The notes under the pieces: generated by a model
The model's input: the letters and a program-made list of their open reading frames with translations, nothing else
Database searches by the model: none
Told to the model about the DNA's origin: nothing
Shown: in pieces, positions 26,339-29,155 of the stretch
Layout of the letters: each line of letters opens with the position of its first letter
How positions within the stretch are numbered: position 1 is the stretch's first letter
Made by a program: the position numbers and the translations under genes
Assembly (NCBI RefSeq): GCF_900142515.1
Contig: NZ_FRBC01000002.1
Coordinates: 62,001 to 126,000 of the forward strand
Reading direction: 5' to 3'
Length of the DNA stretch: 64,000 nucleotides
DNA from: Pseudoselenomonas ruminantium
GTDB taxonomy: Bacteria > Bacillota > Negativicutes > Selenomonadales > Selenomonadaceae

Positions 26339-26695
26339 TCAACAATGACCCTCGTCCCATTTTTTGCATAACTCCTCCAGTGAACCAAAATCATTGCATC
26401 TTTTCGCCAGTGGAGTGTTGTTTCCATTCTGCTGCTTATGGTGATACAGTTGTCCGGCTCTCTTTCTTATCTTATCCTGCATTTGCTTGATGATACGATA
26501 TTCAGCCATCAATAAGTCTTTGTATACCTTGTTTGCAATCGCTGAAAAATCAACATAATGACATTCTTTTTCAGGTGCGGGAAACATGTTGTTCAGATTT
26601 ATAACTGCGTACCGGCCGACCTTCAAAAAATCCATGCTCTCTTTCATCTTTTCGTGCTTTTGCTTGAATGATGACAACGGAGCGAAATAGTCCAT
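26339..26695 (-). CDS. toxN: toxN 3' exon: ToxN/AbiQ-family type III toxin, residues 48-165
   Basis: 118 codons beginning MDYFAPLSSFKQKHEKMKES complete the 47-codon piece at 28825-28965. The joined protein reads LRVNG-MDYFAPLSS across the junction, the strand that carries the active-site PLSS of ToxN/AbiQ endoribonucleases. Downstream GRYAVINLNNMFPAP is the second family signature. The total of 165 residues is close to the usual size of about 170. This half has no ribosome binding site of its own and lies directly against the IStron right end, so it should be translated only from spliced RNA or from DNA that has lost the element. Confidence 0.9.
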   Translation of the reverse strand: MDYFAPLSSFKQKHEKMKESMDFLKVGRYAVINLNNMFPAPEKECHYVDFSAIANKVYKDLLMAEYRIIKQMQDKIRKRAGQLYHHKQQNGNNTPLAKRCNDFGSLEELCKKWDEGHC

Positions 26696-26697
26696 CC

Positions 26698-26985
26698 GCT
26701 ACGATAAATATGTACAAATCTATACAGAATTACACATATCTACGCTGTGATAACCTCTCGGTTTATCTTCCTGATTCATTGCGTCCGATTTTGTCGTTCC
26801 GAAGAACAGGCTACTCTCGTTTGATGTAACGCTCCACAGGCTTAAATTCCCTAGTAGCGATAGGTACATGCTTAAAGTTTCCTCTCGGTGAAATTCTTTA
26901 AGCTGCTTTATGACAGGCTTTGCCTGTCGAAACGCCAATTGGAAGTTTTGCCTTCGGCAAAACCTAAACAACGGCGTTATAGTTT
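26698..26985 (-). ncRNA. Candidate omega (guide) RNA of the IStron TnpB
   Basis: Between the end of tnpB and the element right end lie several hairpins, such as GTTTTGCC-gaa-GGCAAAAC (26945-26964) and GACAGGC-aaa-GCCTGTC (26911-26928) on the minus strand. By analogy with IS605/IS607 systems this RNA ends in a guide copied from the flanking DNA, here beginning GGATGGACTATTTCGC inside toxN. The exact 5' end is not determined. Confidence 0.6.
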
Positions 26986-28136
26986 GCTAAGTTAATGGCA
27001 GCATTCAAATCCCTGTCCAACTTGGCTCCACACACGGGGCAGACGTAGATGCGGTCTGAGAGTTTCAAGTCTGTCTTGATATGACCGCAATGGCTACAAG
27101 TCTTGGAGCTTGCATAGAACCGATTTACCTCTACGACCTTTATGCCATACATTTCAGCCTTATACTTAATCTGTCGCTTAAATTCGTAGAATTTCTGCTT
27201 GGCTATAGCTTCTGCCAGATGTTTGTTCTTCATCATCCCCTTGACATTCAAATCTTCCATGACTATCTGAGATGGCTTGGTTTTCACTATCTCAGCCGTT
27301 GTCTGATGGAGATAATTTGTGCGAATGTCGGTTAGCCGTTTATAAAGAAGCTGGATTCTTCTGTTCTGCCTTTGGAGGTTTCTGCACTCTCGAAGCGGTC
27401 TTTTCCATATCGGACGGTGTTTTTTATCATGGCTCTTGGTATTGGCTTCCAACTTGCGGGATACTTTACGTTGCTCTCGCTTCAGTTTCTTTTCCAAACG
27501 CCTGACTTCGGCAGATTTATTGATGTTCTTGTAGAACCTCGTCCTGCTTGCGTCTTGGTTGGAAACAACAGCCAGTTCCTTCACGCCAAGGTCAATCCCG
27601 AGACTATCGCCTGTCAGTTCAAACTCTTCTTGCTCTACCTCGTAGCCAATAGACAAATACCAATGTTTGCCGTCAAATGAGATATGAGGGTTTGCATACT
27701 TCTTGTTCTTGGCTATTTTCGGCAGTGCCGAAGCAGTTTTTACAATACCAATCTTCTCGCCTTGAAAGCCGTTCTCAGTTCGTTTCAAGCTCTCGTAGTT
27801 GACGTAGAAACTGATTTTGCTTTTTCTGCGGCTCTTGAACTTAGGCTTGCCCGCTATGCCTTTGATATATCTCTGGAGGGCCAATGCCGCATCTTTAACG
27901 CCCTGTTTCATGACATTGCTACCGACTTCTTTCAGCCACGTATGCGTTGTCTTTTTCAGCACATTATTGATGTACTTCCTGACCTCGCCCTCGGTAATAC
28001 GCCGTCCTTCCTTGTATGCCTCTTCATTCGTATCGAGGAAGTAGTTGTATGCCCAACGGGCAGTCCCGGCACTTTTCCAGAATAAAATTTCCTGCTCCTT
28101 AGTCGGCAGAAGCCTTATCTTTATTGCTCTCTGCAT
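26964..28136 (-). CDS. tnpB: TnpB RNA-guided nuclease, intact
   Basis: 390 residues, full length. The three RuvC motifs are present: D182 in LGIDLGVKEL, E294 in IVMEDLNVKGM and DRDLNAAINLA (374-384). The zinc ribbon is C347/C350 and C366/C369. No frameshift or stop is seen, unlike the copy at 20739. TnpB cuts DNA matching its omega RNA next to a transposon-specific motif and so helps the element to be kept or copied. Its ribosome binding site AAAGGTGG is paired in the hairpin at 28147-28185. The gene lies inside the intron in the same orientation as toxN. Confidence 0.95.
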   Translation of the reverse strand: MQRAIKIRLLPTKEQEILFWKSAGTARWAYNYFLDTNEEAYKEGRRITEGEVRKYINNVLKKTTHTWLKEVGSNVMKQGVKDAALALQRYIKGIAGKPKFKSRRKSKISFYVNYESLKRTENGFQGEKIGIVKTASALPKIAKNKKYANPHISFDGKHWYLSIGYEVEQEEFELTGDSLGIDLGVKELAVVSNQDASRTRFYKNINKSAEVRRLEKKLKREQRKVSRKLEANTKSHDKKHRPIWKRPLRECRNLQRQNRRIQLLYKRLTDIRTNYLHQTTAEIVKTKPSQIVMEDLNVKGMMKNKHLAEAIAKQKFYEFKRQIKYKAEMYGIKVVEVNRFYASSKTCSHCGHIKTDLKLSDRIYVCPVCGAKLDRDLNAAINLANYNAVV

Positions 28137-28146
28137 TTTTCATCTC

Positions 28147-28185
28147 ACCACCTTTCTTATGATAAATTATATCATGAAAGGTGGT
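28147..28185 (-). promoter_or_regulatory. Hairpin masking the tnpB ribosome binding site
   Basis: On the minus strand ACCACCTTTC-ATGAT pairs with ATCAT-aa-GAAAGGTGGT just before the tnpB start. The GGTGG ribosome binding site is buried in a stem of about 15 bp with a 2-nt bulge. This would keep TnpB translation low. Confidence 0.65.
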
Positions 28186-28299
28186 ATTGGAGCATTTATA
28201 CTTAGCAATTTAGGGAATTTTCTTGTAAATATGCGATATTCTGTTTTTGATTTGCATATATTTATCTTCTTCACGCTAGAACGCAACTTCTAACGCAGT

Positions 28300-28824
28300 C
28301 TTGCTAGTCCCTTTAGGGATCACCAGCAGACCTCTGACACTTTCATGTCAGCGGAGACTATATCTTCACCCTGCCTTAGCAGGGGCAGTATTTTTCTTCC
28401 ACCTTGCCCTTTCCCATACGAAGTATGGGGTGACAGGCTGCTTGTGGCTTTACTCTCCCTCAAGGAGATAGTCGTTGAGGGTCTCCCATGCTCCGTAGAG
28501 TTTAGGGCTTTCCCTGCTAAACACCCATTGTCAATAGCACTTAGGACATACGTTTTCGGAAGGTCACTACTTTATTCATCCAACACTGATATGTTTTTAT
28601 TTCACCTTATGCCATCCTTACGTTTTTTCTGCTTTCGCACCTTGGGATGTTCCCCAGCTAATCCTTTCGGATTACTGTTTAGGTGTAAGGCTCTTAGGGA
28701 TTAAAAGCATTTAACACTGAGTTTGCACCGATTGCTCGATACAAAGGGTATTCTGTTCGATTAAATCTATACTTCTGTATATATTTATACAGATTTGTTC
28801 AGATTTTTTGTAACAGTTTTGTTA
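28300..28824 (-). ncRNA. Group I self-splicing intron core
   Basis: On the minus strand the diagnostic segments are present in order: TCAACGACTATCTCC (near 28478-28464, the R segment) and GAAGATATAGTCTCC (near 28368-28354, the S segment). Their GACTAT and ATAGTC strands form P7. The peripheral stems CCCATAC-ttc-GTATGGG, CTCCTTGAGGGAG and TGACA-tgaaag-TGTCA lie where P8, P6- and P9-type elements are expected. The same segment sequences occur in phage T4 group I introns. The 5' splice site should lie at or next to 28824-28828 and the 3' splice site at or next to 26698, so the intron spans the whole element. Confidence 0.88.
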
Positions 28825-28965
28825 CCCATTAACCCTAAGCACTATTCCCAGATATTTCCTGGTATTTGCTTGCTCCCTCTTACTGTTATGAAACAGATGA
28901 GGAGCATGAGGGGACAAAAAATCGACATAGGACTCACTTATCTCATAAAACTTAATATTATCCAT
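28825..28965 (-). CDS. toxN: toxN 5' exon: ToxN/AbiQ-family type III toxin, residues 1-47
   Basis: ATG 28965 follows GGAGGAG. The 47 codons read DNIKFYEISESYVDFLSPHA, then SKREQANTRKYLGIVLRVNG, the normal N-terminal half of ToxN/AbiQ toxins. Directly after GGG the frame meets TAA, which is the first codon of the IStron. Without splicing only a harmless 47-residue peptide would be made. It sits just behind the antitoxin terminator, the standard layout toxI - terminator - toxN. Confidence 0.9.
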
Positions 28966-28978
28966 TTTCTCCTCCAAA

Positions 28979-29013
28979 CAGCAGGAGGCGGACTAAAAGC
29001 CCGCCTCCTGCTG
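28979..29013 (-). terminator. Attenuating terminator between toxI and toxN
   Basis: A 13-bp GC-rich stem CAGCAGGAGGCGG with its exact complement, a 9-nt loop, and a short TTT before the toxN ribosome binding site. Type III loci use such a leaky terminator to make antitoxin RNA in excess over toxin mRNA. Confidence 0.8.
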
Positions 29014-29126
29014 TACTCGCACTTAGAGTAGCGAAACACTCGCTGTTAAATCTCTTGAATTGAGCCAAGAGAAGCTCACTCGTAAAATCTCTCAATTAAG
29101 GCTGAGATACACCTCTTCATAATTTA
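29014..29126 (-). ncRNA. toxI: toxI antitoxin RNA with degenerate tandem repeats
   Basis: Between the promoter and the terminator, two imperfect units of about 36 and 43 nt can be aligned. One starts TCTCAGCCTTAATTGAGAGA and the other TCTCTTGGCTCAATTCAAGA. Each is followed by an AGATTTwAC...CGAGTG segment, and a partial third unit follows. ToxI RNAs are tandem pseudoknot repeats cut by and bound to ToxN. The repeat number is low and the units are uneven. Confidence 0.65.
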
Positions 29127-29155
29127 ATTCTAGCATACTATACCTATTTTTTCAA
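29127..29155 (-). promoter_or_regulatory. Promoter of the toxIN locus
   Basis: TTGAAA (29155-29150), exactly 17 nt, then TAGAAT (29132-29127) on the minus strand, close to the sigma-70 consensus. Confidence 0.75.

What the first reader, a model, noticed from the sequence alone, without database searches (positions are those of the whole stretch)
26339..28965. An IStron (group I intron + TnpB transposon) splits a type III toxin gene that should be rebuilt by RNA splicing
Seen: a 47-codon ToxN N-terminal half ends ...LRVNG at 28825. A 118-codon C-terminal half begins MDYFAPLSS at 26695. The 2.1 kb between them carries group I intron segments (TCAACGACTAT and GAAGATATAGTC) at its 5' side and an intact tnpB after it. 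Joining the halves gives a continuous 165-residue ToxN/AbiQ protein. Known: IStrons splice out of host transcripts. Inference: toxin production here depends on ribozyme splicing. The element can then live in a toxin gene at no cost, and the toxin gains a new layer of control. If the canonical U / terminal-G rule is used exactly, the junction could instead read VNRMDY, which is also in frame.
Basis: partly seen in the sequence, partly recalled or inferred. Interest (0 to 1): 0.95.

Follow-up and report, generated by a model that had tools for sequence, protein, structure and literature searches.

The report
Ribozyme-bearing transposon inside a toxin gene
In a relative of Selenomonas ruminantium, a jumping element that carries a group I (self-splicing-type) intron and a TnpB gene sits inside the toxin gene of a predicted toxin-antitoxin pair, so the intact toxin would likely be made only after the intron RNA cuts itself out; such elements are a known kind, and the new part is the gene it landed in.

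Summary
Confirmed, with corrections. The minus strand carries a type III toxin-antitoxin locus (ToxI-like repeats, hairpin, toxN). After codon 47, toxN is interrupted by a 2,129-bp group B IStron (28824..26696): group I intron, IS607-type tnpB and its RAGATH-18 guide RNA, no tnpA. Its intron DNA is 83% identical to SrISt1 copies of S. ruminantium TAM6421. The fold is supported by covariation in seven copies, helix P7 included. The toxN pieces map, apart and without loss, onto a natural uninterrupted 165-residue toxin (46/47 and 118/118 identical). This fixes the boundary: codon GGG belongs to the host. Splicing was not observed. Support is indirect: BcISt1 of the same group splices in vivo (published), and a related copy lies just inside the only L10 gene found in another genome. 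Against: no RNA data, a sub-threshold Rfam score, and 12 base changes of its own. The element is of a known kind; the host gene class was not found in the papers searched. A gain of toxin control is speculative.

The parts
29127..29155 (-). promoter-like site upstream of the antitoxin (TTGAAA, 17 nt, TAGAAT)
   Evidence: 10 of 12 consensus matches; 3 sites found in the stretch against 1.5 expected, so weak on its own
29012..29113 (-). ToxI-like antitoxin RNA, between two and three repeats of about 37 nt
   Evidence: repeat with 37-nt spacing; array conserved upstream of toxN in L063, L046 and, in part, L141; by eye one stem pair is changed on both sides in L063. No Rfam match
28978..29014 (-). 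hairpin between antitoxin and toxin (terminator position of type III systems), 17-nt arms
   Evidence: inverted repeat I1, 94% complementary; not called as a terminator by the pattern scan
28825..28965 (-). toxN 5' piece (predicted exon 1), 47 codons ending in GGG
   Evidence: PF13958 positions 2-41; 46 of 47 residues as in P0001
26696..28824 (-). whole group B IStron, 2,129 bp, TAAC... to ...TAGCGG
   Evidence: ends shared with copies elsewhere; boundary fixed by P0001
28746..28748 (-). CCC of the predicted internal guide sequence, able to pair with host GGG (P1); invariant in 7 of 7 introns aligned
   Evidence: the pairing is inferred
28285..28824 (-). group I intron part aligned with six other copies
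28334..28598 (-). group I catalytic intron match (RF00028, model 1-253)
28468..28473 (-). P7 5' strand GACTAT
28356..28361 (-). P7 3' strand ATAGTC
26964..28136 (-). tnpB (RNA-guided nuclease family), 390 codons
   Evidence: best solved relative 8iaz, E 9e-71
26768..26840 (-). RAGATH-18 RNA, scaffold of the TnpB guide RNA; the guide would be read from toxN exon 2
   Evidence: role of the family from PMC11061315 (passages)
26339..26695 (-). toxN 3' piece (predicted exon 2), 118 codons and stop
   Evidence: PF13958 positions 44-159; 118 of 118 residues as in P0001

Best explanation
A group B IStron of the SrISt1 kind lies in the toxin gene of a predicted type III (ToxIN/AbiQ-like) toxin-antitoxin locus, and the toxN transcript is likely spliced by its group I intron, after the host codon GGG and after the element's terminal CGG, to give an intact 165-residue toxin message. 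Shown: the locus, the split, the element's ends, the intron fold, and a natural uninterrupted allele with the same two pieces. Inferred: unspliced mRNA stops at the UAA that opens the intron and gives a 47-residue peptide without the Ser-Ser-x-Lys part of the active site, so toxin output equals readthrough past the antitoxin hairpin times splicing yield. The antitoxin RNA lies upstream of the element and would be made either way. TnpB with its RAGATH-18 guide would recognise the uninterrupted toxN site and so help to keep the element in place (inferred from published IS607 TnpB work). The element has no tnpA and would move only with help in trans.
For: Group I model over full length, E 4.1e-7. 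Seven aligned introns: 125 pairs, 97.8% of cells paired, 49 pairs with changes on both sides, at most 8 when partners are slid. P7 changes from GACTAT/ATAGTC to GATCAT/ATGATC in L055. Named relative: S. ruminantium TAM6421 plasmid NC_017078.1, the subspecies in which SrISt1 was described (PMC4227781 Table 1). Ends: the 15 left ends seen in the 18 loci all read T-GGG; the 11 right ends seen in the 13 sources all read TAGCGG, before 11 different sequences. Natural allele P0001. One residue lies between the pieces in the five loci where both pieces aligned near the junction (L036, L037, L041, L045, L046). In 5 of 7 intron-bearing copies with both ends fetched, a long downstream frame is in phase with the upstream coding frame although element lengths differ modulo 3. 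L057: element two bases after an inferred GTG start of the only L10 gene found in G077, below an L10 leader. BcISt1 of the same group splices in vivo after G (PMC4227781 section 18). Active site split: Lys33, Thr52, Ser53 and Lys55 of solved ToxN align with Arg36 in the N piece and Ser55, Ser56 and Lys58 in the C piece (P0001 against 2xd0).
Against: No RNA data; splicing untested. The Rfam score is under the gathering score here and in the four other copies that matched at E 0.01; one intron-bearing locus of five given, L055, did not match at all. The window's intron has its own base at 12 of the 255 columns that are invariant in the other six copies; three of them (132-134) lie where the alignment seems shifted, and one (28354) lies just after P7; it also has 46 extra letters of its own, mainly stretches of 32 and 13 nt. 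Its four non-standard pairs are all in one peripheral helix, in the shifted stretch. The motif GAACAA before the IS part reads GAAGAA here. In L052 and L053 the in-phase downstream frame is short (24 and 10 codons) and another frame is longer. The uninterrupted allele differs by one residue, so the insertion is probably recent and intact frames say little about selection since; its source column is blank, so its origin is not known. A toxin gene can be lost without harm while the antitoxin stays, so insertion here, unlike in rplJ, does not itself argue for splicing.
Confidence: 0.78

Rival explanations
1. The IStron is a plain knock-out: its intron no longer splices well, toxN is dead, and only the antitoxin RNA is still made.
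For: Own bases at 12 of 255 columns otherwise invariant, one next to P7; GAACAA motif changed; losing a toxin is tolerable; a second toxN in this genome (C52:21124-21492) is already broken.
Against: Outside one peripheral helix every scored pair of the window is standard, P7 included; the copy in rplJ (L057), which should be functional, has more own-only changes (20); 164 of 165 residues agree with the uninterrupted allele.
Confidence: 0.17
2. Splicing uses the ordinary U rule, U^GGG and GUAG^CGG, so that a codon of the element (Arg) takes the place of the host Gly.
For: [quoted passage not shown] frame and length would be kept.
Against: Group B IStrons splice after G by RT-PCR of BcISt1; P0001 has Gly; no Arg among the 73 loci counted.
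Confidence: 0.04
3. The C piece is translated by itself from its ATG and acts as a shortened toxin or RNA-binding protein.
For: It opens with ATG and keeps 118 codons.
Against: No ribosome-binding site is seen before the ATG, which follows the element's fixed end TAGCGG; the piece lacks the counterpart of active-site Lys33.
Confidence: 0.03

Closest known systems
SrISt1, group B IStron of Selenomonas ruminantium subsp. lactilytica (PMC4227781)
   Same: Intron DNA 83% identical over 511 of 531 query bases (G144); same left end, right end TAGCGG, insertion after TGGG, tnpB and RAGATH-18 RNA
   Different: The G144 copies (2,578 bp) carry a second frame of 213 codons, annotated as IS607 transposase in the named plasmid record; the window's element (2,129 bp) has none, and its host gene is toxN
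BcISt1, group B IStron of the Bacillus cereus group (PMC4227781)
   Same: GG-ending target, CGG end, group I intron; reported to splice in vivo after G
   Different: Not compared by sequence here; other hosts and genes
CdISt1, group A IStron of Clostridioides difficile (PMC4227781)
   Same: Intron plus IS with ORF B; splices
   Different: TTGAT-type target, U at the 5' splice site, IS200/IS605 ORF A
ToxIN / AbiQ type III toxin-antitoxin systems (PMC5086642, PMC8860590)
   Same: Repeat antitoxin RNA, hairpin, then a PF13958 toxin; solved relatives 4ato, 2xd0, 7d8o, 4glk (through P0001)
   Different: Toxin gene interrupted by an intron-bearing transposon
IS607 TnpB with RAGATH-18-derived guide RNA, ISFba1 (PMC11061315)
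   Same: TnpB of 390 against 387 residues, RAGATH-18 downstream, G-rich sequence next to the target
   Different: Published motifs are AGGAG or GAGGG, here TGGG by position only; 'group I intron' occurs 0 times in that text

Membership tests
Group B IStron | group I intron at the 5' side | tested here: met
   (score under the gathering score)
Group B IStron | inserted after a GG-ending site (AGGG, TGGG, GAGG) | tested here: met
   host TGGG
Group B IStron | 3' end CGG, variable 3' flank | tested here: met
Group B IStron | IS607-type IS part with ORF A and/or ORF B | tested here: met
   tnpB and RAGATH-18 present; ORF A absent, as in a published group B element with ORF B only (CsISt1)
Group B IStron | IS part follows a GAACAA-like motif after P9.2 | tested here: inconclusive
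   GAAGAA in the window; GAACAA in L008 and in the six other rows
Group B IStron | intron class IA2 (P7.1, P7.2, P9.0-P9.2) | not tested
   class taken from the survey for SrISt1
Group B IStron | splices in vivo | not testable with these tools
   needs RNA
Type III toxin-antitoxin system, ToxN family | ToxN/AbiQ toxin homology | tested here: met
   (4ato TOXN, E 2.4e-11 with the C piece)
Type III toxin-antitoxin system, ToxN family | tandem-repeat antitoxin RNA upstream | tested here: met
   two to three units of about 37 nt
Type III toxin-antitoxin system, ToxN family | terminator hairpin between antitoxin and toxin | tested here: inconclusive
   17-nt hairpin in place, not called as a terminator by the scan
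Type III toxin-antitoxin system, ToxN family | toxin is an active endoribonuclease neutralised by the RNA | not testable with these tools
   needs assay

The most novel reading that the evidence does not exclude
A splicing-gated toxin: in this toxin-antitoxin locus the antitoxin RNA is free, but the toxin can be made only through a guanosine-dependent ribozyme, so toxin dose follows splicing yield (and perhaps GTP supply or toxin cleavage of its own intron), while TnpB guided to the intact toxin gene protects the arrangement.
Probability: 0.2. Interest if true: 0.85.

Novelty: new member of a known kind. Interest (0 to 1): 0.5.

Why it matters
IStrons are thought to be tolerated because they splice. 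A toxin gene whose antitoxin lies outside the element is a place where the cell can afford poor splicing, whereas rplJ (L057) is one where it should not; comparing the two makes the splicing claim directly testable. If splicing sets toxin level, it would be a control step that our literature searches did not find described for type III systems. The case also gives an independent sign, through a natural uninterrupted allele, that group B elements leave the host GGG codon in place.

Tried and rejected
Element boundary T^GGG: first taken from shared ends, rejected when homologues showed one residue between the pieces and P0001 showed Gly. Arg junction: rejected. dN/dS as proof of selection: synonymous sites are saturated against L063, and the comparison mostly predates the insertion; not used. 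dnaE in G186 as a second essential host gene: the contig begins inside the IStron (L061) and the missing half was not found; the PHP match on C150 is another frame (C65 was fetched but only compared with the element), so this is only suggestive. Covariation between intron base 1 (T or C) and the invariant ACCC: none seen. Viral contigs: 2 loci encode relatives of the C piece, not examined further. Plasmids: 12 records with ToxN relatives, all under 60% identity. Literature: eight searches. Listings were capped (30 of 43; 20 of 97; 15 of 51; 10 of 31; 10 of 12), complete in 49 (2), 76 (4) and 77 (2). No listing that I saw reports an intron or IStron in a type III toxin gene, and in the survey PMC4227781 the word 'toxin' does not occur. 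Only open-licence papers are held; a 2024 paper that I recall, on conflict between IStron introns and guide RNAs, was not in the listings, so absence is weak evidence.

Full report
Observation. On the minus strand, a 47-codon toxN piece (28965-28825) is followed at once by TAA, and a 118-codon piece begins at 26695. Both match PF13958 ToxN, at profile positions 2-41 and 44-159. Between them lie a group I intron match (RF00028, E 4.1e-7, full model, under the gathering score), an open tnpB, and a RAGATH-18 RNA. This is far more than chance.

[quoted passage not shown] Upstream of toxN are a promoter-like site, an array with a repeat at 37-nt spacing, and a hairpin with 17-nt arms, then a GGAGG before the ATG. 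The array is conserved in front of toxN in L063 (S. ruminantium MAG) and L046, and in part in L141. In L063 one stem pair differs on both sides, by eye. Rfam has no match there, and the terminator scan did not call the hairpin.

The element. Of 18 loci scanned, 15 show a left end and all 15 read T-GGG before it; the pattern contained GGG but allowed three differences. Of 13 sources, 11 show a right end, all TAGCGG, before 11 different sequences. The window's intron is 83% identical to three copies in G144 (18 of 189 genomes of the family matched). G144's contig C10 has the length of the S. ruminantium TAM6421 plasmid NC_017078.1, and the element lies at the same place in both. That subspecies is where SrISt1 was described as a group B IStron (PMC4227781; outline and abstract, passages, sections 14, 15, 18 and part 1 of section 20 seen). 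The survey says that group B IStrons insert after GG-ending sites, end in CGG, and splice after a G, shown by RT-PCR for BcISt1. It also says that most IStrons begin with a stop triplet, so that an in-frame insertion puts a stop at the junction; here it is TAA.

Boundary. In five loci where both pieces aligned near the junction, one residue lies between them. In 73 of 80 loci the frame is open for at least 40 codons upstream of the C piece; the residue there is G in 47, D in 13, N in 5, H in 3, E in 2, and S, Q and A once each, never R. The other seven have a shorter frame, one of them at a contig edge. Among 683 proteins found with the C piece (120 listed), the best, P0001, has 165 residues, is identical over the C piece (118 of 118) and differs from the N piece at one residue, number 44 (46 of 47). 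It is a natural uninterrupted allele (14 members, 9 contigs); its source column is blank, so its origin is unknown. So GGG is host sequence, and the element is 28824..26696, 2,129 bp.

The ribozyme. Seven introns were aligned. On a structure from RNAalifold plus P7, 97.8% of cells pair and 49 of 125 pairs have changes on both sides. No shuffle of 500 reaches these values; 19 of 500 reach the number of pair types. Slid versions reach at most 8 such pairs. The structure was derived from the same alignment, which favours it. P7, which RNAalifold did not give, changes in a compensatory way at two pairs in one of seven copies, L055. Against: the window has its own base at 12 of 255 columns invariant in the other six, three of them in a stretch that looks shifted, and 46 letters of its own, mainly runs of 32 and 13. 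By the same count the rplJ copy L057 has 20, L056 19, L055 13, L014 3, and the two near-identical G144 copies 1 each. Rfam's intron model found L052, L054, L056 and L057 under the gathering score and did not find L055 at E 0.01.

Does it splice? Not observed. In 5 of 7 intron-bearing copies with both ends fetched (window, L054, L055, L056, L057) a long downstream frame is in phase with the upstream coding frame, although element lengths differ modulo 3; in L057 the upstream part is only an inferred start codon. In L052 and L053 the in-phase downstream frame is short (24 and 10 codons) and not the longest. Host genes include a histidine kinase (L054), a terminase (L055) and ribosomal protein L10 (L057). 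In L057 an L10 leader (RF00557) is followed by GGAGG, GTG, GG and the element, and L10 resumes after it. It is the only PF00466 match in G077, a genome given as 94% complete. L10 there would seem to need splicing; the GTG start is my inference.

Consequences, inferred. The active-site residues of solved ToxN, Lys33, Thr52, Ser53 and Lys55 (PMC8860590 and PMC5086642, passages only), align in P0001 with Arg36, Ser55, Ser56 and Lys58, the first in the N piece, the others in the C piece; Arg at the Lys33 place is reported in some ToxN clusters. Neither piece alone should be a nuclease. The antitoxin is outside the element. TnpB with a guide read from exon 2 would recognise the uninterrupted toxN, in line with published IS607 TnpB work (PMC11061315, passages only), though the motif there is AGGAG or GAGGG. 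The window's element lacks tnpA; a 236-codon open relative of the G144 second frame lies elsewhere in the genome (C27:92599-93189, 52% identity).

Verdict. A new member of a known kind, in a host gene class that our searches did not find in print (listings, several of them capped). The regulatory reading stays open and testable.

Noticed in passing
L057:2324-4973 (G077): A related IStron sits two bases after the inferred GTG start of rplJ (ribosomal protein L10), below an L10 leader, the only L10 gene found in that genome.
   Followed up: partly
L008:2199-3766 (own genome, C32): An element with the same ends and a similar tnpB and RAGATH-18 RNA but without the intron core, at the 3' end of an exonuclease-like frame; [quoted passage not shown]
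   Followed up: partly
window:20584-22150: A second IS607-type element with a broken tnpB (202 and 140 codon frames), a RAGATH-18 RNA and a tnpA relative with a stop inside.
   Followed up: no
L009:2616-2993 (own genome, C52): A second toxN, broken (a stop inside the match), with no intron match there in the search of the own genome.
   Followed up: no
L055:1-4046 (G065): A terminase gene that appears to hold both an intein-like insert with a LAGLIDADG homing endonuclease and, a few codons further, an IStron.
   Followed up: no
L061:1-3500 (G186): A contig starts inside an IStron whose right end opens into dnaE; the other half was not found.
   Followed up: partly
L059:2415-2728 (G061): A 0.3-kb element with both IStron-type ends and no room for tnpB.
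   Followed up: no
window:29237-43648: A very long open frame of 4,803 codons, adhesin-like by eye, next to the toxin locus.
   Followed up: no
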